A DNA stretch of 64,000 nucleotides from Pseudohongiella acticola (GCF_001758195.1 NZ_MASR01000001.1:1426001-1490000), one strand, 5' to 3'; numbered from the stretch's first letter, positions 6,005 through 22,685 are shown. Program-made: numbers and translations. Notes: a model not told the origin generated them from the sequence alone.

Positions 6005-6054
6005 GTTTGATGTTAGGACCTAGGCATAGCACTAGGCTTAAGAAGTGTCTAAGA

Positions 6055-6198
6055 ATGGATAGAATCGAAGTCATAACCGGGGTACAGCGTCGCAGACGGT
6101 ACACCGCAGAAGAGAAGGCGGTGATGGTGGCCGAATGCCTCAAACCGGGCATGTCAGTCTCGCTTGGCGCTCGAAGACATGGTATATCTGGTAACGTC
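6055..6198 (+). pseudogene. IS66-family TnpA fragment
   Basis: Encodes MDRIEVITGVQRRRRYT then AEEKAVMVAECLKPGMSVS and ARRHGIS. This is the N-terminal helix-turn-helix of the small TnpA/OrfA protein of IS66 elements. Similarity stops after HGIS (about 48 codons), where the normal WRRQ continuation is replaced by unrelated sequence and a stop at 6217-6219. No TnpB or TnpC is present. Dead remnant. Confidence 0.75.
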
Positions 6199-6218
6199 GA
6201 AGCCCATCAAAAGTTGTA

Positions 6219-6299
6219 ATGCTTAGGACCAACGCGGATGTCTTGATGATGATGGTGCCATATTTTGCCGGCTCCTGTGATTGACTTCCCTTATACAAG
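6219..6299 (+). repeat. 80-bp dispersed repeat, copy B
   Basis: ATGCTTAGGACC ... GATGATGATGGTGCC, ATATTTTGCCGGCTCC ... CCCTTATACAAG. Closely matches copy C (9192-9271) and, less closely, copy A (4021-4103), all in the same orientation. It directly follows the IS66 fragment and precedes the 3' end of the minus-strand nuclease gene. Confidence 0.85.
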
Positions 6300-6467
6300 C
6301 TTAGAACCGAGCGCCTAACCTATAAAGACCTACTGAAGTGCCCGTGAAGTCGGTGTAGAACATGCCTCAAAAATGATAGGTGACTTGCCAGTTCCTTCTC
6401 ACCATATGAACTAGCCCGCATTCACTTAAGACTACTGTAATACTTGCCCCTCAGTAGTTGCGGCTGA

Positions 6468-7070
6468 CTACGATTCACTGACGTGGACGACGTAGAGATT
6501 GTGCCTGCAGTCGGGCTTGATTCCTGGCTCAACGAACACCACTGCCTCTTTGTGCCGCTTCAAATTTTTGACAAGATGCCTTGTCGCAGCTCTTACCTCA
6601 GGTGTGTCTAGAAGAACGAGAAACTTAAGACAGTTGGTGGGATCGATCCGTGATTTGCTCTTGCCCTCCATGAGAGCGTCTATATCTTTCACGATCCCGT
6701 TGCGTTGAGCAGAACCGTAAACCGAACCTCCGTTTATCGGTACATTGCACTTTACTTCGGCGACTACGCCGACAGGCTCTGGAATTTCTAGATCAAAGCC
6801 GTTGGTGTTGGGTTGGCTTTGTAGAATCGAATTTCTAAGTTCACCTCGAGTTTTAGCATCCAATTGAAGGGTTTCGCCGAGCCAAGTACCAAATTCCAAG
6901 CAAATTTTCATAGTAAAGATGTTATTGATATCGCTAAGAACGGCCTTCAGCCCAGCAAGTGCCTTTCTGTCCAGGCGGGAATAGTAGTCCAAGTCAGGTA
7001 GAGCAAAATTTTTATGGAAAAATGAATTAAGGCGTTCCTGCAGTGCGCGCTCGCGATCGTAGACGGTCAT
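6468..7070 (-). CDS. Putative PD-(D/E)XK-fold nuclease
   Basis: 200 aa. The centre reads NGFDLEIPEP then VVAEVKCNVP (residues about 90-112): a conserved-looking Asp followed by a hydrophobic strand ending in Glu-Val-Lys, the D...ExK metal site of PD-(D/E)XK nucleases. The N-terminal 85 residues are helical and contain FGTWLGE. The C-terminus (KFLVLLDTPEV, AVVFVEPG) looks like core beta strands. The start ATG has GGAGGGG 8 nt upstream, inside the flank of the 125-bp IS-derived repeat. It stands alone between IS fragments with no methylase or ATPase partner. An orphan restriction or defence role is a guess. Confident it is a real gene, moderate on the fold. Confidence 0.55.
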   Translation of the reverse strand: MTVYDRERALQERLNSFFHKNFALPDLDYYSRLDRKALAGLKAVLSDINNIFTMKICLEFGTWLGETLQLDAKTRGELRNSILQSQPNTNGFDLEIPEPVGVVAEVKCNVPINGGSVYGSAQRNGIVKDIDALMEGKSKSRIDPTNCLKFLVLLDTPEVRAATRHLVKNLKRHKEAVVFVEPGIKPDCRHNLYVVHVSES

Positions 7071-7088
7071 TGCACCACCCCTCCAAGG

Positions 7089-7213
7089 GGTTTTACCCCG
7101 ATTTTACGGAGATTTCAGAAAAGCCTGATTATAGGCAAACGTAGTGTTTAAGTCGAAGAGAAGAAAGTTCAGCCCCGAGTTCAATCTAGATGCCATTGAG
7201 CAGGTTCGACAGC
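7089..7213 (+). repeat. 125-bp direct repeat, copy 1
   Basis: Near-identical (two mismatches) to 7946-8070. It covers the upstream region and first 23 codons of an IS3-family OrfA. The two copies flank a 732-bp segment holding a second IS3 fragment and a small membrane protein gene. Confidence 0.92.
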
Positions 7214-7404
7214 ACGGCGTCAGCTGTGCCCCGGTTGCCCGTGAGCTGGGTATAGGCTCCAATTTTTTGTCACGCTGGAAGCGGCAGACAGAGACCGAGG
7301 GCACACAAGCCTTTGGCGGCACCGGCAAGTCCAGAGACGAGGACATGGCCCGCCGCACGCGTGAAGAAAGACCGGGTGAACCGACGACGTCACCTCATAA
7401 TTGA
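7144..7404 (+). pseudogene. IS3-family transposase OrfA, frameshifted
   Basis: From the GTG at 7144 the frame reads FKSKRRKFSPEF, QVRQHGVSCAPVARELGIG and SNFLSRWKRQ, then FGGTGKSRDED. This is a typical IS3-group OrfA helix-turn-helix. The frame is lost after about codon 60: the alternative frame continues ARVKKDRV, equivalent to the family's RVTKERDF. No OrfB follows. Inactive remnant. Confidence 0.8.
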
Positions 7405-7452
7405 GTAGCAGTGCGATTTAGAGCCAAATACCCCTAGCAGAGTAGATTGAAC

Positions 7453-7570
7453 GTGAAGAAGCGATATACAGACGAACAGATCACCGATTGCTGCAAGAGA
7501 CTGAGTGCGGCGTGCCGCCCAAGGATTTGCGCCACCGGCGCCGATTCACTGGCGAGCAGCGGCCCACCTA
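7453..7570 (+). pseudogene. Second IS3-family OrfA fragment, frameshifted
   Basis: GTG at 7453 gives VKKRYTDEQI, the usual start of IS407/IS3-type OrfA. After one frame change the sequence reads LLQETECGVPPKDL then RHRRRFT, matching the family's 'EAEAGVP.KDLCRRHGFS'. About 40 codons remain. It is a different IS from the OrfA fragment just upstream, so two insertions are stacked here. Confidence 0.65.
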
Positions 7571-7897
7571 ATCTTTTGGGGCAAGAATGATAACAAGTAC
7601 GGACATCACTGCAAAAATACTAGTAAGCGAGAATAAATATATCGTGCGAAATGACACGCCAGCTCTATCTTCTGCATAGATTAAGGGCCTAACCACGCTA
7701 TTAGGGGATTCAGGTTCACCGTAGTGATATATTCGCTCGCTCTGTCTGAGAACTATTCTGATTTGTTGCAGGTTTTGCACTACTCCCGCGTCTGTTCTCC
7801 ACCCGTCAGAAAAAAATACCGCATTGATCCAGATAAAAACTACAATGCCGGCCGTGATTATCCCGTGTCGCTTTTTTAGCTTAGGTGACATTTTCAT
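7568..7897 (-). CDS. Small two-helix membrane protein, hypothetical
   Basis: 109 aa. Two hydrophobic segments at about residues 12-30 (GIITAGIVVFIWINAVFF) and 84-105 (TIYLFSLTSIFAVMSV...). Between them lies a 50-residue soluble loop, probably periplasmic. The family is not recognised. It lies between the two copies of the 125-bp direct repeat and so may have been carried in as a passenger gene. The ATG at 7897 is preceded by an AGAAGG-type ribosome site. Confidence 0.5.
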   Translation of the reverse strand: MKMSPKLKKRHGIITAGIVVFIWINAVFFSDGWRTDAGVVQNLQQIRIVLRQSERIYHYGEPESPNSVVRPLIYAEDRAGVSFRTIYLFSLTSIFAVMSVLVIILAPKD

Positions 7898-7945
7898 TCG
7901 CCTTCTATGATTTGCCGAATTGCCAAGTCCATTATATGCCAGATA

Positions 7946-8070
7946 GGTTTTACCCCGATTCTACGGAGATTTCAGAAAAGCCTGATTATAGGCAAACGTA
8001 GTGTTTAAGTCGAAGAGAAGAAAGTTCAGCCCCGAGTTCAATCTAGATGCCATGGAGCAGGTTCGACAGC
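7946..8070 (+). repeat. 125-bp direct repeat, copy 2
   Basis: Copy of 7089-7213 with two mismatches. The OrfA frame continues only to GTTCGACAGC, then switches to unrelated sequence, so this copy is a truncated IS3 5' end. Confidence 0.92.
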
Positions 8071-8239
8071 CTGATGTTCGCTATACCCCAGTCGCCTGCC
8101 AGACTAGCGTCGGTAGCAATCTGCTGTTCTCCTGTACTATCACGAGCCTCCGCTAATCGTACACGGATGAAGCTTTTCCTCCCTGCCAAACAAAAAAACA
8201 CTATACTCACCGCGAAAACAACGAAAAGCAGGCAACCCC

Positions 8240-9019
8240 ATGGGCAATAAAGCATTAACACGAGCACCTATAGCTGTATTCCTGGTCTTTGTTGCCCTGA
8301 TAGCCACATCTCCTCAAGCTCTCGCTCAGAGCCAAATCGTCAAGAAATCGAACTCTGACATTTGTCACCCACCGGAGAGTAGTTACTACGAGCGGACTCG
8401 AAACTACCGGCCCTTTGAGACCCTTCAGGCGTGCCTCGACAGTGGCGGGAGGCTCCCAGCTAACCTGAGTCGCTCAGCAGTCTCAAAGGTCTCCTCAGAG
8501 CCTCTACCACGCTCCACGACAAGATCTGCATCGAGTAGCGGCTATGACCGATCTCGGTTCGGCCAAGGGTGGGATGACGCTGACGGGGATTGCCAGGATA
8601 GTCGAGCAGAGGCATTGATTGCGACCTCTAACACTCAGGTGCGATTCGCGGACAGCCGGCGCTGCAGGGTCACAACAGGTCGTTGGGTATCCCCGTTTAC
8701 GGAAAATATCATTCAGAACTCATCAGAGATCGATATTGATCATGTTGTGCCACTGCGCTGGGCTTGGGACCGGGGTGCCGCTCAGTGGTCTCAGCAGGAA
8801 CGAGAGAATTTCGCCAACGACCCCGTAAACCTAATACCTGTGGAAGCGAGTCTCAATCGAAGCAAGGGTGCCCGAGGCCCTGATGAATGGCTGCCACCAT
8901 CAGGCCAGTGCAGCTATGTAGCAAGGTTTGTACGGATCGTAAGAGTCTATGGCCTGAATATGAAGGCGAGTGAAGAGCGCAGTATTCAGGCGCTTCTAGA
9001 TCGATGCCAGGACAATTAA
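8240..9019 (+). CDS. Secreted HNH-family (DUF1524-like) nuclease
   Basis: 259 aa. Signal peptide in the first 30 residues (hydrophobic IAVFLVFVALIATSP, cleavage near ALAQS). A low-complexity Ser/Arg linker (about 80-110) is followed by the nuclease domain with EIDIDHVVPL, RWAWDRGA, FANDPVNL and NRSKGARGPDEWLPP. This is the DHxxP/N...N pattern of DUF1524-type HNH nucleases. Related secreted proteins digest extracellular DNA; that role is inferred. The gene ends 45 nt before a hairpin/terminator module that is duplicated after the next gene (10564-10650). Confidence 0.85.
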   Translation: MGNKALTRAPIAVFLVFVALIATSPQALAQSQIVKKSNSDICHPPESSYYERTRNYRPFETLQACLDSGGRLPANLSRSAVSKVSSEPLPRSTTRSASSSGYDRSRFGQGWDDADGDCQDSRAEALIATSNTQVRFADSRRCRVTTGRWVSPFTENIIQNSSEIDIDHVVPLRWAWDRGAAQWSQQERENFANDPVNLIPVEASLNRSKGARGPDEWLPPSGQCSYVARFVRIVRVYGLNMKASEERSIQALLDRCQDN

Positions 9020-9063
9020 TCGGGCCGCGGCTACTGACGATGATGTAATCCAAAGCCACAAAT

Positions 9064-9155
9064 TAGTGAAAAACTAAGCACGACTGTAAATCGCCTGCTA
9101 TAACCACAGTATAGCCAGCAGGAAGCAGCAGGACCCCGCCCTTCGGGGCGGTTTT
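9064..9155 (+). repeat. 3' hairpin/terminator module, copy 1
   Basis: AGTGAAAAACTAAGC..., then a hairpin CCTGCTATA-N7-TATAGCCAGCAGG, then a GC-rich terminator. It matches 10564-10650 over almost the whole length (see that entry). Both copies follow genes read on the plus strand. Confidence 0.8.
9136..9155 (+). terminator. Rho-independent terminator with UUCG-type loop
   Basis: Stem CCGCCC (9136-9141) and GGGCGG (9146-9151) closed by TTCG, followed by TTTT. Ends the secreted HNH nuclease transcript. Confidence 0.85.
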
Positions 9156-9191
9156 AACGTTAGTGGCTCAGGCTCTCCACCCCCGATTGTT

Positions 9192-9271
9192 ATGCTTAGA
9201 ACCAGTGATGAACGCCTGATGATGATGGTGCCATATTTTGCCGCACCTATGATTCACTCCCCTTATACAAG
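9192..9271 (+). repeat. 80-bp dispersed repeat, copy C
   Basis: ATGCTTAGAACC ... CCTGATGATGATGGTGCC, ATATTTTGCC, CCTATGATTCACTCC, CCTTATACAAG. It lies 80 bp upstream of the next gene. Confidence 0.85.
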
Positions 9272-9353
9272 TGCCATCAACTGCCAACCCCAGTGACGCA
9301 AATTCCGATATAAACTATAAGATCAGCCCTTATATCAACATCGGAGGCGACTC

Positions 9354-10532
9354 ATGAAAACCCACATATTTACTCGCAAGGAGCTTTACGATCTGGTCTG
9401 GCAAACGCCAATGACGAAACTCTCAAAAGAAGTCGGGCTGTCAGATCAAGGTTTAGCAAAGCTTTGCAGACGAAGACATATTCCCATTCCCCCACGCGGA
9501 TACTGGGCCAAACACGCAGCAGGACAAAAGGTTACCCAGACACCGTTGCCGGAACTCGCAGATGATGTCGCACGCGACCCAATAGTGATAGAACAGGTTG
9601 ATAAAGCGCTGACGAAACCCAGGCCAGAGGTAGTAAAGGCTCTTGCTTCGACCCCTACACCCGATATCAGTGTACCTAGAAAGCTAGTAAAGCCGCACCC
9701 GGTAGTTAGCCGTTGGCGCGACGAACGAGAGGCGTCGATCCAGCGCAACAAACGGTGGCAAGCTCACCTTCCTGTGTCAATGCGCGACCATTCCCGGAAG
9801 CCCTTCACTAACCTTGAAATGAGGCGCCACCGTATATTGGACACTATATTCAAAGCTATTGAGAAGTGCGGGTACAAGGTCGGGCCAGGAAGCTATGACC
9901 AATCGTGGGAACTAACCTACGAAGGGATACCAGTGGAGTTCAACATCACTGAGCGGTACAAACAAGTAAAAATGCCGCTTACGAAGGAAGAGCTTGTCGA
10001 GCCTTGGAACAGAGGCAAAACCCACAAAATTGAGCGCCAATTCAGCGGCAGATTGATGCTCAATATAAAGACCTGGCTCCCCAGAGGCCTTGCGACTCGC
10101 TGGGCAGAGGAAAACGACGAGCATACCCTAGAAGAAGATGTTCCGGATATTGTGAGGATATTCAAGGCTGCCGGACCCTTGCTGGTAGAGCAAAAGCGGG
10201 AAAGAGAGGACCAACGCCGTCGAGATGACGAGGAGCGGAGCCGACGGCATCGAGAGGCACAGCGAATCAAAGCTGACGAGGAGTGCTGGGAGCGCTTCAT
10301 TGCTGCTTCCAACAGGAGCCAAGAGGCCGCCCGAGTGCGAGAGCTGATTCAAAGGATAGAGGAAATGGCGGCCACCCAAGACTCAACAATAGATGTCGAC
10401 GGCAAGGCGATAACGGAGTGGATACAGTGGGCGAAAGGCTGGGCAGTGCGACATGACCCGCTATCTGGGAACATAGTAGATTTTTTCGCAAGAATCTCTG
10501 AACCAAAGAATGGCAGCCCTTGGCTCATTTAG
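9354..10532 (+). CDS. Conserved hypothetical with N-terminal HTH-like domain
   Basis: 392 aa. Residues 5-60 (FTRKELYDLVWQTPMTKL, VGLSDQGLAKLCRRRHIPIPPRGYW) form a helix-turn-helix-like opening that I know as recurrent in uncharacterised proteins of proteobacterial islands. The middle (about 155-250) is a mixed domain with EGIPVEFNITERY. A strongly charged coiled coil (about 275-320, EKREREDQRRRDDEERSRR) precedes a short C-terminal domain. No catalytic motif recognised. GGAGG lies 7 nt before the ATG. It has its own terminator module, copied from, or copied to, the preceding gene. Confidence 0.75.
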   Translation: MKTHIFTRKELYDLVWQTPMTKLSKEVGLSDQGLAKLCRRRHIPIPPRGYWAKHAAGQKVTQTPLPELADDVARDPIVIEQVDKALTKPRPEVVKALASTPTPDISVPRKLVKPHPVVSRWRDEREASIQRNKRWQAHLPVSMRDHSRKPFTNLEMRRHRILDTIFKAIEKCGYKVGPGSYDQSWELTYEGIPVEFNITERYKQVKMPLTKEELVEPWNRGKTHKIERQFSGRLMLNIKTWLPRGLATRWAEENDEHTLEEDVPDIVRIFKAAGPLLVEQKREREDQRRRDDEERSRRHREAQRIKADEECWERFIAASNRSQEAARVRELIQRIEEMAATQDSTIDVDGKAITEWIQWAKGWAVRHDPLSGNIVDFFARISEPKNGSPWLI

Positions 10533-11037: not shown

Positions 11038-11114
11038 TGGCGCACCCGGAGAGATTCGAACTCCCGACCAAGTGGTTCGAAGCCACCTACTCTATCCAGC
11101 TGAGCTACGGGTGC
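11038..11114 (-). tRNA. tRNA-Arg (anticodon TCG)
   Basis: 77 nt including an encoded CCA. Acceptor arms GCACCCG/CGGGTGC, D arm AGCTCAGCTGGATAGAGT, anticodon loop CTTCGAA giving TCG (decodes CGA), T arm with GTTCGAATC. A -10 box TATAAT (complement of 11126-11131) lies 11 nt upstream of the 5' end, and a terminator follows. Its 3' end points towards the element-rich region at lower coordinates, so it is a possible integration site. No second copy of its 3' end is seen in the window. Confidence 0.97.
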
Positions 11115-11648: not shown

Positions 11649-12974
11649 ATGGCTACTGGCATCACCAAACGTGAGCAGCACTCAAAGGACGCGATTTCCG
11701 CCGCTGATTTCTATCAGGAACCTATTGCCTTGCCGTCGAAAGGTGATGAGGTCACGCTCAGCTATCCTAACAAGGCCGACCGAGCAGACATAATCACGCC
11801 GACTGCGCGTCGGTTTCTGCTATTAAGCGGCACGGACACGACAGAAGTTAGTAAAATCCCAGAGAACGCCTTCATTCTTGACGATAACTTCTTTGTTCTC
11901 AATGAATTGATACGTGAAAATGTAAAAGTAAACCTGTTTTACCTTGACCCCCCATATGGCACAGGTTTTGACTTCCATTCTCGAGATCTTGAGCATGCGT
12001 ATAAGGATAGCATGGGGCCAGCTGCCTACATTGAATTCATGCGACGTCGCCTAATCCTCATGCGCGAAACAATGGCAGACGATGGCTCGATATATGTCCA
12101 TATTGGTCATCAGATGCTTGGTCACTTGAAAGTCGTGATGGACGAAGTATTCGGCTCTGCTAACTTCCGTAACCTCATCACTCGGAGGAAGTGCAGTAGC
12201 AAGAATTTTACTAGCAAACAGTACGCTAACATACATGATTACATTCTCTTTTATTCCAAGTCAAAATCTTATAAGTGGAACAAACCGGGCATTGAACCGG
12301 AGAAAGAATGGATCGAGAAAGAATATCCAAAATTTGATAGCCTTGGGCGACGATACAAGCTCGTCCCTGTTCATGCACCAGGCACTCGTAATGGTGAGAC
12401 TGGACAGCCATGGCGCGGAGTCATGCCGCCGTCAGGGAAACACTGGCAATATACACCTACCAAGCTTGACGAATTTGATCGACAAGGTGATATCCACTGG
12501 TCTAGCAATGGGAATCCGCGCCGCAAAGTCTATTGGACAAAAGGAAAAAAAACATCGCTAACTGATTACTGGGATCAGTATCGCGACGCATATCACCAAA
12601 GCATCAAGATCACTGGCTACCCGACTGAGAAAAACCTAGAAATGATTAAAATGATCGTCGGGGCCAGCTCTGATGCAGGTGACATCGTAGTCGACCCGTT
12701 CTGTGGCTCAGGGACAACGCTTCACGCTGCAAGAGACTTGGAACGACGATATCTAGGTATCGATGCCTCATTCAGCGCGGCCAAGGCAACTATACACCGC
12801 ATGCGACACGGCTTGAAACCGATGGGAGACTATGTAAACGGGACCGCAAAGAAAGCCGGTAATCAACCTCTACTCTTAGAGAGTGAACCCGAGGGGCCAC
12901 TTTGTAGTTTTATAGTCGATAGTCAACTGATTGAGGCGTATCCGAATGAAGTCCGTGATATTTCCAAGATTTAG
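11649..12974 (+). CDS. DNA methyltransferase, beta class (probably N6-adenine)
   Basis: 441 aa. The catalytic motif IV DPPYGTG is N-terminal (residues 100-106). The AdoMet motif I DPFCGSGTT lies near residue 350, with ARDLERRYLGID after it. This order (IV before I) is the beta class, as in type III Mod and many type II enzymes. DPPY rather than SPPW favours N6-adenine. Target recognition should lie between (about 170-320). AGAGG lies 7 nt before the ATG. The gene converges on the next one with overlapping stop codons, suggesting a restriction-modification pair. It is probably the protective methylase of a type II system. Specificity unknown. Confidence 0.9.
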   Translation: MATGITKREQHSKDAISAADFYQEPIALPSKGDEVTLSYPNKADRADIITPTARRFLLLSGTDTTEVSKIPENAFILDDNFFVLNELIRENVKVNLFYLDPPYGTGFDFHSRDLEHAYKDSMGPAAYIEFMRRRLILMRETMADDGSIYVHIGHQMLGHLKVVMDEVFGSANFRNLITRRKCSSKNFTSKQYANIHDYILFYSKSKSYKWNKPGIEPEKEWIEKEYPKFDSLGRRYKLVPVHAPGTRNGETGQPWRGVMPPSGKHWQYTPTKLDEFDRQGDIHWSSNGNPRRKVYWTKGKKTSLTDYWDQYRDAYHQSIKITGYPTEKNLEMIKMIVGASSDAGDIVVDPFCGSGTTLHAARDLERRYLGIDASFSAAKATIHRMRHGLKPMGDYVNGTAKKAGNQPLLLESEPEGPLCSFIVDSQLIEAYPNEVRDISKI

Positions 12975-13858
12975 CCTTCCAACCATTCTGGAGTTATCCT
13001 CGCTGCGGCCAATTTCATCGTGACTACGCGTACTCGTCCGTCCCATTGGCCATCCAGCACACATGACTCTTCCCAGGTATCCCCATGTATGAGGCCAGGC
13101 CCGTCTGACAAGAAAATCAATTTGAGACGAGTCGACGTAAATTCGTCAAAAGCTTTAGCTTTTTCGACTTTATTCGAGTTGCCGCCAGTCCGGTCGTCAG
13201 ACTGCGCACCGCCTCGCGTGGAGTCGTAGCGAGCAAATCCAACGGCTAATACCTCCTGGTCGCTATAGCGACGGATTACAAAGTCACATGGATAAGAGCC
13301 GTCAAAGTCGGGATAGAGTTGTGACAGCTCGATATCACGCCCGGCACCACGTGGACCTTCGATAGAATACTGATCTTTAAAATGATCTTCGAACCAGTCA
13401 AAAAATGTCTCTGTGAGCTGATAACCGAGCTGTCCCCGCATGTCGTATTCCCCAATCAGTGCTGCCAATGCATACTTATACTCTGTTGACAGGCCTGAGA
13501 ATTGAGCTTTTAGCTTCGAGATCGGCTTGAACGTGTTTCCATAATTTTGGATAAGGGACTTAGTGCTAATTTTCCTGATTTTTTTAGTAGTCTCGGTGTC
13601 GAGTACAGGAGAAACGCAGCGGCGATACATCTTTAGAAGTGCCATACGCTGATCCGCATCTCGATCCGTTGATCGGATTTTTTCCAATACATCTGCGCTC
13701 GATTCGGACTCATTGATGATTTCGCAAAACAAATCAATAGCATTACCGTACTTCTTGATCAGGATTTCCAGCACTTCGGGGAACCGAATCGTGCTGTCTA
13801 TCGGTGTAATGATTCTACTTACATCAGTAATGGTCCGAAGAAAATTATCGCCACTCAA
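12971..13858 (-). CDS. Putative restriction endonuclease partner of the methylase
   Basis: 295 aa, not confidently recognised. The region around residues 165-225 has GPRGAGRDIELSQLYPDF, CDFVIRR, EVLAVGFARYDS and RGGAQSDDRTGG. An acidic residue before beta strands and an Arg/Asp-rich loop of this kind occur in several type II endonucleases. A clean D...ExK site is not visible. The C-terminus has KLIFLSDGPGL. The role is inferred mainly from the convergent layout with overlapping stop codons with the DNA methyltransferase. The apparent start is TTG at 13858 with GAGAGG 6 nt upstream; 40 bp separate it from the divergent glycosylase gene. Confidence 0.55.
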   Translation of the reverse strand: MSGDNFLRTITDVSRIITPIDSTIRFPEVLEILIKKYGNAIDLFCEIINESESSADVLEKIRSTDRDADQRMALLKMYRRCVSPVLDTETTKKIRKISTKSLIQNYGNTFKPISKLKAQFSGLSTEYKYALAALIGEYDMRGQLGYQLTETFFDWFEDHFKDQYSIEGPRGAGRDIELSQLYPDFDGSYPCDFVIRRYSDQEVLAVGFARYDSTRGGAQSDDRTGGNSNKVEKAKAFDEFTSTRLKLIFLSDGPGLIHGDTWEESCVLDGQWDGRVRVVTMKLAAARITPEWLEG

Positions 13859-13898: not shown

Positions 13899-14516
13899 AT
13901 GCGTATCAACTATCTAGGAGAAATACCATTGAGCCAGCTACAGCATCTGATAGGCGCGTACCCACAACTCTCTGACCTGTTTCAGAAACTTTCTCCACTA
14001 GAACCCCTAAAGCCCCAGTCGCTGCCCATAGCGGAAGCTGTTACTAAAATTGTGGTGGGGCAGATGCTATCACGCGCTGCGGCCAATACGATATACTTTC
14101 GCATTCAAGCACGCTGCGCAGACCATAAGCTGGTAGGAAGCTGGAAACTAACCGAAGCGGATTTGATTAGCTGCGGTTTATCTCGCCGTAAAGCCCGAAC
14201 GATCCGAGAATTTTCCGCCTGTTACGAAAGCGACCCTGGCAGCATCGAAGCATGGCGCAGACTCGATTATCAGGAACTTAGGCTAGCAGTATCAGAGCAT
14301 TGGGGGTTGTCCCAATGGTCCGCAGACATGCTAGCAATTTTCTACTTCGCGATGCCTGATGTTTTCCCTGAAAGCGATGGCTCAATTATCCGTGCTCGCA
14401 AAATTCTTGAAGAACGTTTTTTGCCAGCGAAATTAGAGCCAGACCGAAGTCGCCCGTTCCGAAGCTATCTTGCTCGTTACATGTGGGCGCTCCTGGATGA
14501 AGGAGTTCTAAGTTAA
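13899..14516 (+). CDS. AlkA-like HhH-GPD DNA glycosylase
   Basis: 205 aa. Helix-hairpin-helix glycosylase fold: KIVVGQMLSRAAANTI (about 50-65) and CGLSRRKARTI (92-102) match the helices before the hairpin. WGLSQWSADMLAI (135-147) occupies the place of AlkA's GVGPWTANMLAI. DVFPESDGSIIRA (154-166) carries the expected catalytic Asp at 160. AlkA-type enzymes excise alkylated bases (3-methyladenine and others). It is shorter than E. coli AlkA because it lacks the N-terminal domain. It sits divergently next to the putative endonuclease and may belong to the restriction-modification cassette. Substrate unknown. Confidence 0.8.
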   Translation: MRINYLGEIPLSQLQHLIGAYPQLSDLFQKLSPLEPLKPQSLPIAEAVTKIVVGQMLSRAAANTIYFRIQARCADHKLVGSWKLTEADLISCGLSRRKARTIREFSACYESDPGSIEAWRRLDYQELRLAVSEHWGLSQWSADMLAIFYFAMPDVFPESDGSIIRARKILEERFLPAKLEPDRSRPFRSYLARYMWALLDEGVLS

Positions 14517-15211: not shown

Positions 15212-17062
15212 TCAGTCTTGACCCCATATGACACTGGATAAATCGAACAACAGCCTATGCCTGTAATCCAATTCATCGGGACCAAACTTTGACAGCTCAT
15301 GAAAATCCAAACCGTACCTTTTTCGGAACGCATCAAAGTCAAGCTTTGATTTGTATGTATCCGATCTAAGAGTTTCGTTCCAATAAAGAGTACCGGCATA
15401 GGTTTTTAGCTTTTCGACATACACCTCATTTGAACTAGATATATTGTCTTTACCCTTCAGTAAGAGAATCCCACCAAGCCTGTTTCGTTCAGCATCAAAC
15501 CTCTCGTCATCACCACCAAAAGCATCCAGATTAAACTGGTTATTAGACAAGATATGTTCTACATGGAAACCGGTTTTCTCACCCCGCCTGGAAACTAAAT
15601 CTTGAATAGGATGCTTGGGACTGACCTTCATACCATTTGCGATAAATTGATCAATTCGAGCGAAGTAGTAACGAATGAAACGTTTATTGAGTGATACAAT
15701 CGAAGCACTACGGAAGTAACCCCATTGGAAGCTCTCGCTCACTGCACCTGAGCGCCTCTGCTCCAGAATATGGCGCAAGTGCTTTTCAAAAACCGGAGCA
15801 ATTTCTTCAAGAGACACATCTCTAATCCCTCTCGCCACCAGGAAAAGCTCCGTTATGACCTGGTTACTATCGTAACTGTTTTGCAGTTGCAAAAGAGTGA
15901 AGAATCGATCTAGCTGTCGTGACACTAAAGCTATTTTTTGCGTTTCTTCAGGATCATCCAGCCTGCAGGAAGAAAGAATCAACATGAACTGAGTATCAAG
16001 ATCGTTAAGATTATTATAAAAGACACAGGGATAATCATCGTTTAGTTTCTGGGCGCCATCCCAAACTCGCGCGTATAGATTTGAATAATAACGAAAAGTA
16101 CCTGCTAAGAACGATTTAACAGCAATTGAATTGTGCTCGAGATCAAGCACCTGGTTCATGTCGCTCTTAAACATCTCTCGGTGATAATCACCATCAAATC
16201 GCTGCCCTTCTTTACGAGAAAGGACAAACCTAGCTTTCAACCAAGACCGAAAAAACGCGTCTATTTCATTATCTCGATAGGCATTTACTTTACTAGTTTG
16301 CCGCTCCCATATCTCGTTGTAATTCCCCTTATCTAGCTCAATTTTATCAATCTGCCCAAGTAGTTTACCTTTTAGTATTTCATAGGGCCTCAATCGCACA
16401 CCTCGATCATTGATAACCTCAAACACCATAGGGACATCAGTTTGCTCAACCGCCAAATTAATCAACACTAACCTAGACAAGAAGTAGAATACGAAAGTCT
16501 CTAGCTTATGCTGGCTATCAATACACTTATCAAGCCACTGATCGATAGTCAGGTAGTTGCTAACCATGTTTACGGCAGTGATACCTCCAGACGTTTGAAT
16601 TAAGCCAGGATCTTCTCCCTCGAACAGCCCATCCAACACGCTCTTAAAACGGACATGGTTCATCCAGAAGTTACGCTCCACGCCACTGTAACCTGCAACT
16701 TTGTTTTCTAACCAAGGCGCTGTCTTGGACTCATATGTTTTTGCCATGTGGTGAAGTTTAATCAATATCAACGTCAATGTCGTAAGACGTTGCTGACCAT
16801 CTACGACATACACTCGCCCATCAATCACATTAGTGACATAAGTGTTAAGGTAATACCAAGGGTAATATGCCGTTACTGTTTCTTTACCCGGATCTAGATC
16901 AAGGTGTTTCTGATAAGCCTCTCCAAACTGGTAATAAATATCATCCAACAAGCGTTGAACGGGTTCAGCTGTCCACTTATAGTCACGTTGATAGAAATCA
17001 ATGTAGTAAACGGTGTTTGAGAAAACTGAGTCTATATTCTGTTTATCAGGGGAAATATCCAC
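15212..17062 (-). CDS. GmrSD-like DUF262/DUF1524 protein
   Basis: 616 aa. The N-terminal DUF262 domain has YIDFYQRDYKW (about 20-30) and VVDGQQRLTTL (about 88-98), the ParB-like DGQQR motif associated with NTP use. The C-terminal part has FHVEHILSNNQFN followed by NRLGGILLLKGKDN, the HNH-type DUF1524 nuclease motif. Single-chain fusions of this kind are relatives of the type IV enzyme GmrSD, which cuts glucosyl-hydroxymethylcytosine DNA, so anti-phage defence is the likely role. The start is GTG. The DNA is visibly AT-richer than the operon to its right, indicating a separate origin. Intact. Confidence 0.85.
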   Translation of the reverse strand: MDISPDKQNIDSVFSNTVYYIDFYQRDYKWTAEPVQRLLDDIYYQFGEAYQKHLDLDPGKETVTAYYPWYYLNTYVTNVIDGRVYVVDGQQRLTTLTLILIKLHHMAKTYESKTAPWLENKVAGYSGVERNFWMNHVRFKSVLDGLFEGEDPGLIQTSGGITAVNMVSNYLTIDQWLDKCIDSQHKLETFVFYFLSRLVLINLAVEQTDVPMVFEVINDRGVRLRPYEILKGKLLGQIDKIELDKGNYNEIWERQTSKVNAYRDNEIDAFFRSWLKARFVLSRKEGQRFDGDYHREMFKSDMNQVLDLEHNSIAVKSFLAGTFRYYSNLYARVWDGAQKLNDDYPCVFYNNLNDLDTQFMLILSSCRLDDPEETQKIALVSRQLDRFFTLLQLQNSYDSNQVITELFLVARGIRDVSLEEIAPVFEKHLRHILEQRRSGAVSESFQWGYFRSASIVSLNKRFIRYYFARIDQFIANGMKVSPKHPIQDLVSRRGEKTGFHVEHILSNNQFNLDAFGGDDERFDAERNRLGGILLLKGKDNISSSNEVYVEKLKTYAGTLYWNETLRSDTYKSKLDFDAFRKRYGLDFHELSKFGPDELDYRHRLLFDLSSVIWGQD

Positions 17063-17288: not shown

Positions 17289-17535
17289 TGAACTAGATCC
17301 CAATTAAACCGGACACGTCGTTGGCGAATGGGTAATGTTCGGTTTATCACGGTCAACTAGAAGTAAGCAGTGTTTTAACATGCAGCTAGCTCTTGATTCC
17401 GATATTGATTCGCCAATGAAGCCTCAGAGATGGAGAATAAAACTACACGAGCAGAGTGTGATGTTGTAGTACAGGGACCGATAGCGCGCAACGACAACGC
17501 CTATGCAGAGTCTTTGTTCCGACCATTGAAATACT
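17289..17535 (+). mobile_element. IS3-family remnant (end plus OrfB scrap)
   Basis: TGAACTAGATCCC then AATTAAACCGGACAC (17289-17315) repeats the terminus at 5974. At about 17478-17535 the plus strand encodes ARNDNAYAESLFRPLKYC, the conserved 'DNA.AESLF..LKY' segment near the third catalytic acid of IS3-type OrfB, closed by TGA. Everything between is deleted. Inactive. Confidence 0.7.
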
Positions 17536-17568
17536 GCTGAGCGGTATTAAGTATTGGTGGCGATTCAA

Positions 17569-18864
17569 TCAGGCTTTATCGAACAATTCTCCGTCCAGCC
17601 AGACACTGATTGTATCGATTAATGCGCCTTGCCCTTCGGGCAGCGTTAACGCCATCAGATTGATTGGCAGTACGGTTAACTCTATATCACTGCCTCCCAA
17701 AGCCGACAGCACCCGCCATATTGTCGGCTCTCGATTCACAGCGACCGGATAGGTCAACGAGACCCGTTGACAGCCGAGGACATGACCCGCAGTCAACACC
17801 TGATAAGTGTCTGCCGCTTTCGGTCTCGAGCCTAGACGCTTATATTTGGAGTCGGTGACAGCGACAGGGATACCCCGGCTGTCTCGGAAAATCACATCCG
17901 GTACAGTTTCCAATCTACTCCCTTCTCCAGCGATTATCTCTCCAAACTTGAGTACACCCTTCTGGATTCGTTTGCCGCGCTGACTAGCCGCGCGCTGGCA
18001 CAACCAGTAGACGTAGTTTTCGTAAATAACGTCTGAGTTCCACAGGAAACCGGACAACGCTTGGTGCCCGGCGGCGTGGTGGACACCAGCTCCCTCCAAA
18101 AGCAACAGCCCGACCATCCGAGCGGCCTCCAGTCCTTGGTGCTGGAGGCCGAGTACATTTCGTTGCGCGTCGAAGAGGTGAGGAGGTTGTCTGCCAACAT
18201 GGTTAAGGCTGGCCGCTATCTCGCGCACTGCCCGGGCTCGTCCAGGTTCTTTCACTGTTGCAGCCAGACACTCAGCAGACCAGCGCAGCAGCCGAGCCAA
18301 AGCATTGTCATCAGTCAAGAGATCAGCGACGTAGGGAAGCTCCCACGGACGCGCCACCCACTCACCAAGTCGCGAGGTGTCCAGATTCCCCCGAAGCGTA
18401 AAGCCAGCTGCTTTCTCCGCAACATATCCGCGCGGAAGACCGCGAGCTGCGCCCTTGGCGTAAGACGCGAGGAACATCTCAGCGAGTAAGTCAGGCATGG
18501 ATAGTGACGTAAGATGATTGGCGCTCGTCAGGTTGTCGTCGACGTGACCGCCCTCGACGACCGTGAGAATTCGCCACAACACCGCCTGCCAGCTGCCATT
18601 AGCGGTACTCAGAAACTTCGGCGCGATCTCGATATCGGTACCGCCAATTCGGACGACACCTGTTACCCCTTCTGCTCGAAGCTTCACGAACCCATTGTCC
18701 ATGTCCATCACCCGGACAGGATCAACTGAGAGTCCCAGTGCTCTACTCCAGCGTTTGTTCGCCTCTGCCAGCAAGCGGAGATCGAGATCCTCAGCAGGGT
18801 GAACGACTGGTACGCCGTATTCTTGGAGCTCTATTCGCGCCGGGGCTGTCAGCGCGTCAGCCAC
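17569..18864 (-). CDS. mcrC-like: McrC-like restriction nuclease subunit
   Basis: 431 aa. N-terminal region with VRIGGTDIEIAPKF (about 70-85) and RGNLDTSRL, typical of McrC. The C-terminal nuclease domain has NSDVIYENYVYWL (about 290) and PDVIFRDSRGIPVAVTDSKYKR (about 330-350), giving the PD...D-x-K site of the family. McrC binds McrB and supplies DNA cleavage. The start overlaps the end of the McrB-like gene by 16 nt, so the two are translationally coupled. It is the last gene of a five-gene minus-strand operon that also encodes two methylases. An IS3 remnant lies just beyond its stop. Confidence 0.85.
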   Translation of the reverse strand: MADALTAPARIELQEYGVPVVHPAEDLDLRLLAEANKRWSRALGLSVDPVRVMDMDNGFVKLRAEGVTGVVRIGGTDIEIAPKFLSTANGSWQAVLWRILTVVEGGHVDDNLTSANHLTSLSMPDLLAEMFLASYAKGAARGLPRGYVAEKAAGFTLRGNLDTSRLGEWVARPWELPYVADLLTDDNALARLLRWSAECLAATVKEPGRARAVREIAASLNHVGRQPPHLFDAQRNVLGLQHQGLEAARMVGLLLLEGAGVHHAAGHQALSGFLWNSDVIYENYVYWLCQRAASQRGKRIQKGVLKFGEIIAGEGSRLETVPDVIFRDSRGIPVAVTDSKYKRLGSRPKAADTYQVLTAGHVLGCQRVSLTYPVAVNREPTIWRVLSALGGSDIELTVLPINLMALTLPEGQGALIDTISVWLDGELFDKA

Positions 18865-20030
18865 CTGAAGGACCTCTTGATGACTTCGATGTCGAGTTCG
18901 CTAACCCGGACGGGCGCAAGGGTACTAGCTGCGACAGTGCTGCCCAGGTTAGTTCGTAACGTCCAAGCGTAGCCGCCGGCTGGCGGCGCAGTGTCGACGT
19001 GTAGGAGATCGAGCAACTGCTGAGGCCGACCTGAATACCTGTCCTCAAGCTGGGGGAACAGCATCTCGTCCCAGGTCTTGGCGAGGCTGCGCCAGGCATC
19101 GTTTTCCTCGACGGGCTGTATGGTCCCGTCGTCTGCAGTTTTCTTAGCCAATACCGGTGTGAGAAGACCGTGGCCGAACTCGAATTCGCGACCTAGGTCG
19201 GTGGAGACGGCGACGTTCAGTCGGTCGAGGAGGAGGTAGCTGGTTACGAACGGGCTGAGCGTTTCCCAGTTTGCATCGGTCGGTGCAGGGATAGTGGTCT
19301 CGTCCAGATCCCAGAGCTGGGCGAGGACGCTGAGGCTGGGGCGCATCTCGATCCGATTGAACCGACGCGCAAGGGCGCTGTCGATGGGCACGGCTGCTCG
19401 GTCTACGCTGTTCATCGTCGAGACAATGTAGATATGCCTCGGGAACGTGAATCCCTCGGGAATCGAGGCGGACTTGCCACCAGGGCGGCTGATCTCCTCA
19501 CTTTGGCCTTCCTCGTAGGTCAGCTGTCGAAGTGGAAGCGGTAGGGGAACGAGCCCGCCATCCCGGTAATCAAAGTCTAAGAAGGTCATGAATTCGCCGA
19601 AAATGCGAGCGGCATTGCCCCGGTTGATCTCGTCGATGAAAATCACAACCGATTTGTACTCGGATTCAGAGTCGGCGAGCTCAAGCGCGGCGTCGAGGAA
19701 GATCCCAGCCCACGGCTGGAGACGGGTGCCGGTGTCGGTGATTTCTGGCCGCAGCCCCATCACAAAGTCCTCGTAGCCGTAGGACTGATGGAATGTAGTC
19801 CACACCACCTTGATCGGTTGCGGGATCGTGATTTCCTGTTCAGGCCTACTGAAAGGCTTCGCGGCGTCGGCGACGTCGAGGAGTATGCCTTTATGAGCCT
19901 TCGGCGGGTTGTTCAGAGCATCAAAAAGCTCGCTAATTAGCCGGGTCTTCCCAGTGGCCGGCGGTCCATAGAGAAGCGCGTTCCTGCCTGCACTCCAGGA
20001 GGACAGGATATCGTCGATCTTGTTAGTCAT
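18849..20030 (-). CDS. mcrB-like: McrB-like AAA+ GTPase/translocase subunit
   Basis: 393 aa. Walker A GPPATGKT at 22-29, Walker B with VVIFIDEINRGN (about 128-138), and STMNSVDRAAVPID (about 222) at the sensor position where McrB has TMNTADRS; then ALARRFNRIEMRP. These are the signatures of the McrB branch of AAA+ proteins. Unlike E. coli McrB (about 460 aa) there is no N-terminal DNA-recognition domain: the AAA+ module begins almost at residue 1. Its ATG overlaps the stop of the 189-aa gene (4 nt), so the missing recognition function may be in that separate protein. Nucleotide preference (GTP) inferred from family. Confidence 0.88.
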   Translation of the reverse strand: MTNKIDDILSSWSAGRNALLYGPPATGKTRLISELFDALNNPPKAHKGILLDVADAAKPFSRPEQEITIPQPIKVVWTTFHQSYGYEDFVMGLRPEITDTGTRLQPWAGIFLDAALELADSESEYKSVVIFIDEINRGNAARIFGEFMTFLDFDYRDGGLVPLPLPLRQLTYEEGQSEEISRPGGKSASIPEGFTFPRHIYIVSTMNSVDRAAVPIDSALARRFNRIEMRPSLSVLAQLWDLDETTIPAPTDANWETLSPFVTSYLLLDRLNVAVSTDLGREFEFGHGLLTPVLAKKTADDGTIQPVEENDAWRSLAKTWDEMLFPQLEDRYSGRPQQLLDLLHVDTAPPAGGYAWTLRTNLGSTVAASTLAPVRVSELDIEVIKRSFRWLTR

Positions 20031-20596
20031 GACCTATCTCCTTCCGCATTGATTACGCCACCCACAGCTATGCCTTCTGGGTATAAATCCCATGTCGGAT
20101 CGTTGCGTTTCATGCTCGCTGGCCTCGGCCCCTGCGTAAAACCGGCGTAGTAGTCGCCTTCGATGGTCTTCGCGATGTAGATACGGAGCCCGCCTTCAGG
20201 GAAGTACGAGAGGGCCTCCTGCGTGCTGCCGACGCCGTCGGGTGCGGTTGGAAAGCCTCGCGCCGCGACCCAGGCTGGATGGCGTTGGGAGCCCGGCTGT
20301 TGCCGGTTCTGACGCGCGATACGCATCCGACCGCCCTTCTTCTTATGGAATTCGATCGGACCCGACTCACCTGGCTGGCCGACGACACCGGCATCGATGG
20401 TGATGATCGGCAATTCATCCACGTTGGCTCCGGTAACACCGAGGAAGCTGAGGGTCGCAACAACCATCGAGTTCGGGATTTCGATGTAGAGGGAGCCACC
20501 GCCGCTCTTGATCCGATGGTATCGCTCTATGTTGTAGAACTCGCCCGGCTGGACATTCCGCCACCAAATGCGATCGATATTCTGTTTTTCCGCCAT
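20027..20596 (-). CDS. Unknown 189-aa protein in methylase/McrBC operon
   Basis: No family recognised. Features: an aromatic N-terminus (RIWWRNVQPGEFYN, residues 9-22), a beta-rich stretch with SLYIEIPNSMVVATLSFLGV, a basic loop HKKKGGRMRIARQNRQQ (about 83-100), and LRIYIAKTIEGDYYAGF near the C-terminus. No signal peptide or membrane helix. Start ATG 2 nt after the D12 methylase stop, with GAGG before it. Stop overlaps the mcrB-like ATG. Because the adjacent McrB-like protein lacks its usual DNA-binding N-terminus, this protein is a reasonable candidate for a separate recognition or adaptor subunit. That is inference only. Confidence 0.75.
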   Translation of the reverse strand: MAEKQNIDRIWWRNVQPGEFYNIERYHRIKSGGGSLYIEIPNSMVVATLSFLGVTGANVDELPIITIDAGVVGQPGESGPIEFHKKKGGRMRIARQNRQQPGSQRHPAWVAARGFPTAPDGVGSTQEALSYFPEGGLRIYIAKTIEGDYYAGFTQGPRPASMKRNDPTWDLYPEGIAVGGVINAEGDRS

Positions 20597-20598
20597 GG

Positions 20599-21621
20599 TT
20601 AAAAGGCCTCGATGTGGTATAGATGCTCAAGCACAGATCCATCCTTGACTCCGGCATTGCTGCGGTACCGGACATGCGGATGCTCGTGTAGAGTGACCTT
20701 GCCGAAGTCGCTCAGGATGGCTAACAGCTCCTCCTCATGAACTTGGCCGTCCTGGCTATAGGAGATGAACACGTGTGGTACATCTAGCCGCTTAAGCGTC
20801 TCACGGAATGCCTGGCCGGCGCTACGCCGGTAGCAAAAGTCAGACGCCTGCTCCCTCCACGGCCGCAGCCCGCCGTCGCCGGCAGCTACTGGTTCGTCCT
20901 CGCGAGCTATTGTCTCAAGGACATGATAGTTTCCGGCATACTGTCGCTTGGTGTAAGGCGGGTCGAGGTAAACCGCATCGACGCGGAGAGACGAAGCGTG
21001 CTCTTCAATCGGTCCGTGCAGCACTGTGTGATTACCAGGTGTTCGCTCAAACTCGATCGCGCCGAATGTTAGCGGTTGAAGGGAAGGTTGGGAGAGCTTG
21101 CTCAGGAAATACCCGTAGGTGCCGCTAATGTTAGCGACCTTATTAGTGGCCAGAATCAGATGATGGAGCAGCACGCTGTGCTCGATCTCGGTGATGGCAC
21201 CGGTTGCGGCCAGTTTGCGGATGCCGTCTCGGATACCGTCGATGTGCGCGGCGTTGACCGCCGAGAAATAGAGGCGCGGAGCACGCCCGTTCGCGGGCTT
21301 GCCGGCCTCGCCAAACTCTTGGAAAAAATAGCCCTCTACGGGCGTAGCCGAGAGCATCCAATCCAGCGCCTTGTAGTAGCCGCCTAGGGATTTGAAGGCC
21401 GGAGCCTGCTTCGCGAGCAGACGTGTTCGTGCGTGAATGACGGGGAAGGTTAGTGCATCGGCTGCGGTGACTGAGTAGCCGACACGGGCCAGAGCCAATG
21501 AAACAGAAGCTGTGCCGCACATCGGGTCAGCAATCGATGAGCCCGCCGGGAGTACACGCGTGACCTCCCCGACAATCCAATCGACCAGCCGCGTCTTGTT
21601 ACCTAGGTAGCGATACGACAT
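20599..21621 (-). CDS. D12-class (alpha) N6-adenine DNA methyltransferase
   Basis: 340 aa. Opening MSYRYLGNKTRLVDWI is the usual D12/Dam-class start. Motif I DPMCGTASVSLALA at 32-45. Motif IV AVYLDPPYTKRQYAGNYH near 217-233, with the YxxNYH extension seen in a subset of D12 enzymes encoded next to restriction genes. C-terminal VFISYSQDGQ. It transfers methyl from AdoMet to adenine N6. The gene follows the EcoRI-family methylase by 2 nt and precedes the 189-aa gene by 2 nt: one operon. Two different adenine methylases together suggest an asymmetric target, one enzyme per strand, or two targets. Confidence 0.9.
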   Translation of the reverse strand: MSYRYLGNKTRLVDWIVGEVTRVLPAGSSIADPMCGTASVSLALARVGYSVTAADALTFPVIHARTRLLAKQAPAFKSLGGYYKALDWMLSATPVEGYFFQEFGEAGKPANGRAPRLYFSAVNAAHIDGIRDGIRKLAATGAITEIEHSVLLHHLILATNKVANISGTYGYFLSKLSQPSLQPLTFGAIEFERTPGNHTVLHGPIEEHASSLRVDAVYLDPPYTKRQYAGNYHVLETIAREDEPVAAGDGGLRPWREQASDFCYRRSAGQAFRETLKRLDVPHVFISYSQDGQVHEEELLAILSDFGKVTLHEHPHVRYRSNAGVKDGSVLEHLYHIEAF

Positions 21622-21623
21622 AA

Positions 21624-22685
21624 CTACTCTCTGCTGCTCTGGCAGTCACGACTTTTATTTCTAACAACTACGCGCTCGTACATCCGGCGGTAGGTGCCAT
21701 CGCCTTTTGGGAGATAGAAACGGGGTCCGCCCTGCTGATAGGCCCCCTTCTTCGCTACCTGCGACATTGGCCGGCTGAGGGTTTTGCTGGAGCCGAGAAT
21801 GTCGAACTGATCTGGGCTGTACTTGTCGAGGAAGGTAATAGGCACCCCCATGGGACCATCGTAATCGTACGGAATGTCCATGGTCTTGCTGACCTCAATC
21901 CCGTCGAAGTTAGCATATTTCGGATATTCATCTGGGCAGTAGCGCCTCTGAAGATCCAAGTTCTCGTGCCGGCCGGGATAATCGAGATTGGTGAACCAGC
22001 GGACGCCCTTTACGCGGATATATTTGTTGCCGTGCTCGTCGACTCTCGATCCAGCCGCCGTGATGGGGTAATCGTCCGGCACACGGAACTCACGGTCACC
22101 GCTGCGTACACTGGGGCCATACCAAATCAAGTTTTCCTGGAAGAGCGGAAAGATCTCTGTATAGGTCACGGCATTCATGTTGCCGATGATCACGAACTTC
22201 TTATCGTACTCGACCAGCTGGGCGACATATTCCCGGAATAGCGAGAAAGGCGGGTTGGTTACCACTATGTCGGCCTGTTTGAGCAGTTCGACACTCTCAC
22301 CGCTGCGGAAGTCGCCGTCGCCAGTGAGCAGCTTAATGCCGATTTCCTCAGCACTCGGGATGCTATTGCCATTCTTGCCGCCGGTATACTCTAGGTAGAC
22401 AGCTTGATCAGAGCCCTTCTGCCCGAAGAGGTTAGCGTCTTGGCTTCTATAGCAGGTGGTGACGAGCTTCTTCAGGCCGAGTTTCTTGAAATTGGTGGAA
22501 AAATAGCGAAAGAAATTACTGGATCGCGGATCGTCACAGTTGCAGTAGACAACTTTGTCCTTAAAGTGGCTCGTGTAGTGCTTCAGCTCAAGCTCAATAT
22601 CGCTAAGTGAGGTGTAGAACTCATCCTTCTTCGCTTGCCTAGCTTTCTTAAAGTCACGGTTTCGGGCGGTTCTCGTCATCTGCAT
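21624..22685 (-). CDS. EcoRI-family adenine DNA methyltransferase
   Basis: 353 aa from the first ATG. The second ATG (22679) is better spaced from GGAG (6 nt) and is probably the true start, giving MTRTARNRDFKKARQAKKDEFYT. The KKDEFYT opening, VVYCNCDDPRSSNFFRYF (AdoMet region), IVVTNPPFSLFREYV (motif IV NPPF) and KGVRWFTNLDYPGRHE are characteristic of the M.EcoRI family. First gene of the five-gene operon. The promoter should lie in 22686-22760. No EcoRI-type endonuclease gene is present; restriction would come from the McrBC-like pair. Confidence 0.9.
   Translation of the reverse strand: MQMTRTARNRDFKKARQAKKDEFYTSLSDIELELKHYTSHFKDKVVYCNCDDPRSSNFFRYFSTNFKKLGLKKLVTTCYRSQDANLFGQKGSDQAVYLEYTGGKNGNSIPSAEEIGIKLLTGDGDFRSGESVELLKQADIVVTNPPFSLFREYVAQLVEYDKKFVIIGNMNAVTYTEIFPLFQENLIWYGPSVRSGDREFRVPDDYPITAAGSRVDEHGNKYIRVKGVRWFTNLDYPGRHENLDLQRRYCPDEYPKYANFDGIEVSKTMDIPYDYDGPMGVPITFLDKYSPDQFDILGSSKTLSRPMSQVAKKGAYQQGGPRFYLPKGDGTYRRMYERVVVRNKSRDCQSSRE

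What the first reader, a model, noticed from the sequence alone, without database searches (positions are those of the whole stretch)
17569..22685. Five-gene operon: two unlike adenine methylases, an unknown 189-aa protein and a McrBC-like pair
Seen: five genes in one direction, joined by 2-nt gaps and 4- and 16-nt overlaps. Order: EcoRI-family methylase, D12 methylase, 189-aa unknown, McrB-like, McrC-like. Known: McrBC alone is a type IV system that cuts modified DNA, and carrying methylases beside it would be self-defeating. In LlaJI, LlaI and BsuMI, however, McrB/C-like subunits act with two methylases as modification-protected restriction. Inference: this is such a system, but with two unrelated N6-adenine methylases (EcoRI-type and D12-type) and an extra subunit. 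This combination is one I do not know as described. The GC-richer composition relative to the flanks supports transfer as a unit.
Basis: partly seen in the sequence, partly recalled or inferred. Interest (0 to 1): 0.78.

Follow-up and report, generated by a model that had tools for sequence, protein, structure and literature searches.

The report
McrBC-powered two-methylase restriction-modification system
Five bacterial genes form a conserved, horizontally spread immune cassette in which two different adenine methylases probably mark the cell's own DNA and a separate DNA-reading protein steers a McrBC-type motor nuclease against unmarked DNA; it is a new variant of the rare LlaJI kind of restriction system, with the reading domain detached as its own subunit.

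Summary
The GC remark is wrong for one side: operon 57.0%, right flank 57.3%, left flank 47.3%. The order EcoRI-type methylase, D12 methylase, small protein, McrB, McrC recurs in all 15 nearest D12 relatives among 84,980 species, in four phyla, with congruent divergence and intact catalytic motifs. The "unknown" 189-aa protein is confidently predicted to have the B3 DNA-reading fold; its best structural match is the recognition domain of H. pylori LlaJI.R1. Homologues are fused to McrB-like AAA proteins (some next to LlaJI-family nucleases), to HNH nucleases and to NOV_C proteins, beside a related D12 and a second adenine methylase. Best explanation: modification-protected restriction. The B3 subunit finds the unmodified site, McrB/McrC translocate and cut, and the two methylases protect the site, probably one strand each. 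It works like LlaJI, but the McrC is PF10117 rather than PF09563, the methylases are adenine-specific and recognition is a separate subunit. New variant of a known kind; recognition sequence and activity are untested.

The parts
21624..22685 (-). EcoRI-family N6-adenine methylase (353 aa), first gene; NPPF motif intact; 48% identical to genuine M.EcoRI, 63% to the EcoRI-type methylase of a Gordonia plasmid
   Evidence: Pfam PF13651 1.6e-136; invariant motif VVTNPPFSLF apart from one variable position, in the 16 copies; tree and identities
20599..21621 (-). D12-class N6-adenine methylase (340 aa); motifs DPMCGTA and DPPYTKRQY intact
   Evidence: Pfam PF02086 2.5e-24; 58-84% identical to 15 relatives; motifs
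20027..20596 (-).
   Evidence: AlphaFold2 pLDDT 89.6, pTM 0.87; top structural match 6c5d, LlaJI.R1 N-terminal domain, Z 8.9, rmsd 2.9, 120 aligned; all rows with Z of 4 or more are B3 domains; homologues fused to McrB, HNH and NOV_C
18849..20030 (-). McrB-like AAA+ NTPase (393 aa) with no N-terminal recognition domain; Walker A GPPATGKT, Walker B FIDEINRGN, NxxD signature TMNSVDRA
   Evidence: AAA_5, NCBIfam McrB-like 9e-21, PDB McrB matches 1.5e-20, invariant motifs
17569..18864 (-). McrC-like nuclease (431 aa) with intact PD...DxK motif (PDVIF...AVTDSKYK)
   Evidence: Pfam PF10117 2.4e-29; catalytic residues invariant in 16 copies

Best explanation
A five-gene type II-like (modification-protected) restriction-modification system. 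The 189-aa B3 protein binds the unmodified target sequence and docks onto a McrB AAA+ ring, taking the place of the N-terminal domain that McrB itself lacks. Binding licenses NTP-driven translocation (probably GTP, by analogy with McrB) and cutting by the PD-(D/E)xK nuclease of McrC. The D12 and EcoRI-type methylases put N6-methyladenine on the same site, most likely one on each strand of an asymmetric sequence, so that the B3 subunit no longer binds and host DNA is spared. Shown: gene content, conserved unit, intact motifs, predicted B3 fold and the natural B3-McrB, B3-HNH and B3-NOV_C fusions. Inferred: site binding, NTP use, cleavage, strand assignment.
For: The order EcoM-D12-B3-McrB-McrC occurs in 15 of 15 nearest D12 relatives, in Actinomycetota, Bacteroidota, Pseudomonadota and Thermodesulfobacteriota, with the B-C overlap at 16 nt in 11 of 15 by the starts chosen automatically. 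Pairwise distances of the five proteins correlate at r 0.76-0.96, and 0.78-0.93 without the outlier L035. The D12 copies form one clade (99% SH-aLRT), and so do the EcoRI-type methylases (91/93). B3 fold by prediction and structural alignment, best match LlaJI.R1 NTD. The same domain is fused N-terminally to McrB-like AAA proteins (L056: B3 residues 4-151, residues 191-574 aligned to the window's McrB at 34%, followed by McrC), to HNH and to NOV_C, beside a related D12 and a second adenine methylase. The AAA and nuclease of one B3-McrB fusion locus (L066) are 57% and 49% identical to R1 (AAA part) and R2 of LlaJI on pNP40. LlaJI restricts unmethylated DNA, needs both R1 and R2, and has an asymmetric site and two methylases (PMC1459862); its R1 uses a B3 domain (PMC12707154, PMC7680126).
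Against: No biochemistry. The B3 assignment rests on a predicted structure; no sequence similarity to LlaJI's own N-terminal domain was found and Foldseek E-values are weak, best 2.9e-3. M.EcoRI alone protects a palindrome, and the nearest EcoRI-type methylases outside this system sit in apparent two-gene systems with one methylase, so 'one methylase per strand' is not certain. Purified R1.LlaJI showed no GTPase activity (PMC1459862), so nucleotide use is by analogy.
Confidence: 0.82

Rival explanations
1. Type IV system: McrBC with the 189-aa protein as a reader of modified bases, the methylases being unrelated neighbours or a lure.
For: McrB and McrC families are best known from type IV enzymes; a GmrSD-type gene lies 506 nt downstream.
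Against: Two active-looking methylases are locked into the operon in all 15 relatives and would make suicidal substrates. The recognition protein matches B3 domains, which read unmodified sites in LlaJI, BfiI, EcoRII, UbaLAI and CglI/NgoAVII (PMC4267653). The same domain also drives HNH and NOV_C proteins beside two methylases.
Confidence: 0.07
2. Two fused systems: an EcoRI-type methylase acting as an independent or orphan modifier (own palindromic site) in front of a D12-B3-McrBC system that needs only the D12 enzyme.
For: EcoRI-type methylases exist as single-methylase systems with a GmrSD_N-HNH nuclease. The EcoRI-type gene has the lowest GC of the five, 52.6% against 57-59%. The D12-B3 core also lives with three other kinds of second methylase.
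Against: The EcoRI-type gene is present in 15 of 15 relatives and co-diverges with D12 (r 0.95; 0.89 without L035). In the sister class the slot is filled by another adenine methylase (PF01555) in all 4 cases, which points to a required second methylase.
Confidence: 0.1
3. A decayed or silent passenger without function.
For: Flanked by AT-rich spacers, with an apparent short transposase-like remnant downstream; one relative (L033) has a frame break in McrB.
Against: All five reading frames are open and all catalytic motifs intact; junctions that suggest translational coupling are kept.
Confidence: 0.03

Closest known systems
LlaJI (Lactococcus lactis pNP40; H. pylori LlaJI)
   Same: Two methylases in one operon with a McrB-like AAA protein and a PD-(D/E)xK nuclease; site recognition by a B3 domain; restricts unmodified DNA (PMC1459862).
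   Different: LlaJI has two 5mC methylases; its B3 domain is fused to the AAA protein and has no detectable sequence similarity to the window's; its nuclease is PF09563, whereas the window's is PF10117 and does not match R2.LlaJI.
E. coli McrBC (type IV)
   Same: McrB AAA (E 1.5e-20 to McrB structures) and PF10117 McrC.
   Different: E. coli McrB carries its own DUF3578 reader of methylcytosine (PMC7680126); the window's McrB has none and its operon carries two adenine methylases.
BsuMI (B. subtilis) and LlaI (pTR2030)
   Same: Operons with methylase activity and, from memory, three restriction genes including a McrB-like one; LlaI has adenine methylase domains.
   Different: From memory, not tested here: BsuMI uses 5mC methylases; LlaI uses one fused methylase. 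Whether one of their extra subunits is a B3 protein was not tested.
CglI / NgoAVII
   Same: B3 domain for site recognition with a separate NTPase subunit (PMC4267653).
   Different: PLD nuclease fused to B3, DEAD-family ATPase, one 5mC methylase.
Methyltransferase-associated McrB clade of Bell et al. 2024 (PMC11090510)
   Same: NxxD-signature McrB GTPases next to predicted DNA methyltransferases; the window's McrB has NSVD.
   Different: The paper reports only the association and defers it to a later publication; no B3 subunit or methylase types are described in the sections read.

Membership tests
LlaJI-type restriction-modification | McrB-like AAA subunit plus separate nuclease subunit in an operon with two methylases | tested here: met
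   McrB matches R1.LlaJI at E 1.7e-11
LlaJI-type restriction-modification | B3-fold site-recognition domain | tested here: met
   Fold only, from a predicted model; present as a separate protein, not fused to the AAA subunit
LlaJI-type restriction-modification | Nuclease of the LlaJI R2 family (PF09563) | tested here: not met
   Window nuclease is PF10117 McrBC; no match to R2.LlaJI. Relatives with B3-McrB fusions do carry PF09563
LlaJI-type restriction-modification | Two 5-methylcytosine methylases | tested here: not met
   Both are N6-adenine families PF13651 and PF02086
LlaJI-type restriction-modification | Restricts unmethylated DNA at an asymmetric site | not testable with these tools
   Needs restriction assays and a methylome
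Type IV McrBC | McrB with N-terminal modified-base reader (DUF3578/SRA, YTH, EVE) | tested here: not met
   AAA domain starts near residue 5; no reader domain by Pfam
Type IV McrBC | McrB AAA with Walker motifs and NxxD signature; McrC with PD-(D/E)xK | tested here: met
CoCoNuT | NxD signature and coiled-coil McrB | tested here: not met
   Signature is NSVD, an NxxD; McrB is 393 aa, AAA only by Pfam
EcoRI-type methylase PF13651 | Profile match and catalytic NPPF | tested here: met
EcoRI-type methylase PF13651 | GAATTC specificity | not testable with these tools
   48% identical to M.EcoRI, with a divergent stretch around residues 195-240
D12 methylase PF02086 | Profile match and DPPY | tested here: met
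B3 DNA-binding fold | B3 pseudobarrel | tested here: met
   Z 8.9 to 6c5d; rows 1-24, all Z 4.4 or more, are B3 proteins; next unrelated row Z 2.2. Predicted model, not experimental

The most novel reading that the evidence does not exclude
A D12 methylase and a matching B3 reader form a portable specificity core that has been coupled in evolution to at least four unlike cutting engines (McrB+McrC, LlaJI-type R1/R2, HNH, NOV_C) and several unlike second methylases.
Probability: 0.45. Interest if true: 0.7.

Novelty: new variant of a known kind. Interest (0 to 1): 0.55.

Why it matters
McrBC is the textbook machine that cuts modified DNA, and only a few systems such as LlaJI are known to use it the other way round. 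This cassette supplies a reader-less McrB with its reader as a separate protein, so the question of how site recognition is passed to the McrB motor can be tested with purified parts. The wider family shows the same reader domain joined to four different nuclease engines, a natural set for asking how restriction specificity moves between engines.

Tried and rejected
GC content as evidence of transfer as a unit: rejected, the operon equals the right flank. Looking for an empty site in sister genomes: G007 carries the neighbouring gene (94% identical) but flanking synteny is scrambled, so no clean empty site. Repeats bordering the operon: none of note. Sequence-only search of the 189-aa protein against Pfam, PADLOC, NCBIfam and PDB: no match. 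First profile comparison of the two free-reader subfamilies with 3 sequences each: no signal; with larger alignments weak support (E 2.9e-4, probability 40%), and both models match B3 domains. The H. pylori LlaJI.R1 structure paper is not held; its B3 claim is taken from PMC12707154 and PMC7680126.

Full report
WHAT IS THERE. The five ORFs are at the stated coordinates on the minus strand, in the stated order and with the stated junctions. Profiles give EcoRI_methylase (1.6e-136), MethyltransfD12 (2.5e-24), AAA_5 (2.9e-9) and PF10117 McrBC (2.4e-29); the 189-aa protein has no family match in Pfam, PADLOC or NCBIfam. The McrB-like protein is AAA only: its Walker A lies near residue 22 and there is no N-terminal reader domain. 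The composition remark needs correcting: operon 57.0% GC, right flank 57.3%, left flank 47.3%. The odd stretch is the left 17.5 kb, which holds integrase genes and other restriction genes.

IT IS A UNIT. The D12 methylase alignment was used as query in 84,980 bacterial and archaeal species. All 15 best relatives (58-84% identity) have the same five genes in the same order. They lie in Actinomycetota (9), Bacteroidota (2), Pseudomonadota (3) and Thermodesulfobacteriota (1). The pairwise distance matrices of the five proteins correlate at r 0.76-0.96 (Mantel p at most 0.0005) and still at 0.78-0.93 without the most divergent member. The 16-nt McrB-McrC overlap is found in 11 of 15 with automatically chosen starts, and a 2-nt D12-reader gap in 11 of 15. 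Walker A and B, the NxxD signature, the PD...DxK motif, DPPY and NPPF are invariant in all copies compared (L033 has a frame break in McrB). The unit is sporadic: the reader protein is absent from 144 sampled relatives and, by profile, from 397 other genomes of the phylum; in 320 other genomes of the class the D12 enzyme has only relatives of 32% identity or less. This patchiness across phyla, not GC content, is the evidence for horizontal spread.

WHAT THE UNKNOWN PROTEIN IS. A first search, with the protein alone, found it as the N-terminal part of a 372-aa HNH protein on Roseobacter plasmids, next to a D12 methylase 46% identical to the window's and a second N6 methylase. In the 80 loci (fetched by their D12 gene, so the presence of D12 there is by construction) the same domain appears in four settings: free, beside McrB and McrC (19 loci: 15 with the EcoRI-type methylase, 4 with a PF01555 methylase convergent to McrC); fused in front of McrB-like AAA (15 loci, followed by McrC in L040 and L056 and by a LlaJI-type nuclease in nine others); fused to HNH (13); fused to NOV_C (9). 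A further 18 loci have a second, probably related free reader with a D12 and an Eco57I-like methylase, most with McrBC following. Six loci were unresolved. The fusion in L056 covers both the window's reader (residues 4-151) and its McrB (residues 191-574, 34% identity): Rosetta-stone evidence that the window's two proteins act together.

FOLD. AlphaFold2 on the 49-row alignment gave pLDDT 89.6 and pTM 0.87. VIA-align places 6c5d, the N-terminal domain of H. pylori LlaJI.R1, first (Z 8.9, rmsd 2.9, 120 aligned), tied with other B3 domains; rows 1-24 are all B3 proteins (plant B3 factors, UbaLAI, BfiI, EcoRII) and the next row is at Z 2.2. Foldseek alone is weaker (best E 2.9e-3, also B3). The second reader subfamily also matches B3, with the BfiI C-terminal domain first (Z 8.3).

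HOW IT PROBABLY WORKS. LlaJI has two 5mC methylases, an R1 subunit that binds its asymmetric site and carries the McrB-like GTPase domain, and an R2 nuclease; both are needed in vivo (PMC1459862). Later papers state that R1 recognises its site through a B3 domain (PMC12707154; PMC7680126). Two methylases of unlike families suggest an asymmetric site with one enzyme per strand, as in LlaJI; this step is the least secure, because M.EcoRI (48% identical) needs no partner and the nearest EcoRI-type methylases outside the clade live in apparent two-gene, single-methylase systems with a GmrSD_N-HNH protein. That the slot is filled by a different adenine methylase in each sister class (EcoRI-type, PF01555, TaqI-like, Eco57I-like) argues that a second methylase is required.

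EVOLUTION. On the D12 tree the window's class is one clade (SH-aLRT 99), grouped with the PF01555 class (93); reader/nuclease architecture changes at least 6 times and the second-methylase type at least 3 times (quick tree, several long branches). The AAA and nuclease proteins of the Enterococcus fusion locus L066 are 57% and 49% identical to R1 (AAA part) and R2 of LlaJI on pNP40, although its reader and methylases are of the window's kind. So LlaJI's engine has been combined with two unlike sets of reader and methylases.

KNOWN OR NEW. Works like LlaJI: yes, probably. Member of LlaJI by strict features: no, since the nuclease family and methylase type differ. Bell et al. 2024 (PMC11090510) noted a large McrB clade associated with DNA methyltransferases and left it for a later paper; none was found in the library. 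The library holds only open-licence papers, so a description elsewhere, or an entry in REBASE, cannot be excluded. I judge it a new variant of a known kind, with the modular B3-D12 core as the more novel claim.

Noticed in passing
L004:7001-9231, L005:7001-9153, L006:7007-9111, L007:6968-9098, L106:2995-5122, L107:2998-5262: EcoRI-type methylase genes on plasmids of several phyla are followed directly by a DUF262 gene of about 370 aa (GmrSD_N plus HNH in L005): a candidate two-gene modification-protected system built on a GmrSD-type nuclease.
   Followed up: partly
L044, L060, L066, L071, L072, L073, L074, L076, L077: Loci with a D12 methylase (and, where the contig holds it, a TaqI-like adenine methylase), a B3-McrB fusion and a LlaJI-type nuclease (PF09563 in the four tested): an adenine-methylase version of LlaJI.
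   Followed up: partly
L049:2520-3725, L050, L051, L053, L055, L057, L059, L062, L064: The B3 reader is fused to a NOV_C domain beside D12 and TaqI-like methylases, suggesting that NOV_C acts as the nuclease of a type II-like enzyme.
   Followed up: partly
window 11649-13858: Another likely restriction-modification pair: PF01555 methylase (PADLOC type II model 1e-142) and a convergent, overlapping 295-aa protein without family match, next to an HhH-GPD-like gene (13899-14516) and tRNA-Arg (11038-11114).
   Followed up: no
window 15212-17062: 616-aa GmrSD_N/GmrSD_C protein on the same strand, 506 nt downstream of McrC; probably a separate type IV-like enzyme in the same defence cluster.
   Followed up: no
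window 1-10532: AT-rich left region with two integrase-like genes (69-1520, 2616-3605) and a GmrSD_C/HNH gene (8240-9019): an integrated element or defence island.
   Followed up: no
window about 17470-17545: Short open stretch reading RNDNAYAESLFRPLKYC beside the operon's 3' end, resembling the C-terminal end of an IS3-type transposase (recognised from memory); possible insertion-sequence remnant.
   Followed up: no
L015:10928-11689: In Pimelobacter a gene annotated as endonuclease VII domain protein follows McrC with an overlap, a possible sixth component in that class.
   Followed up: no
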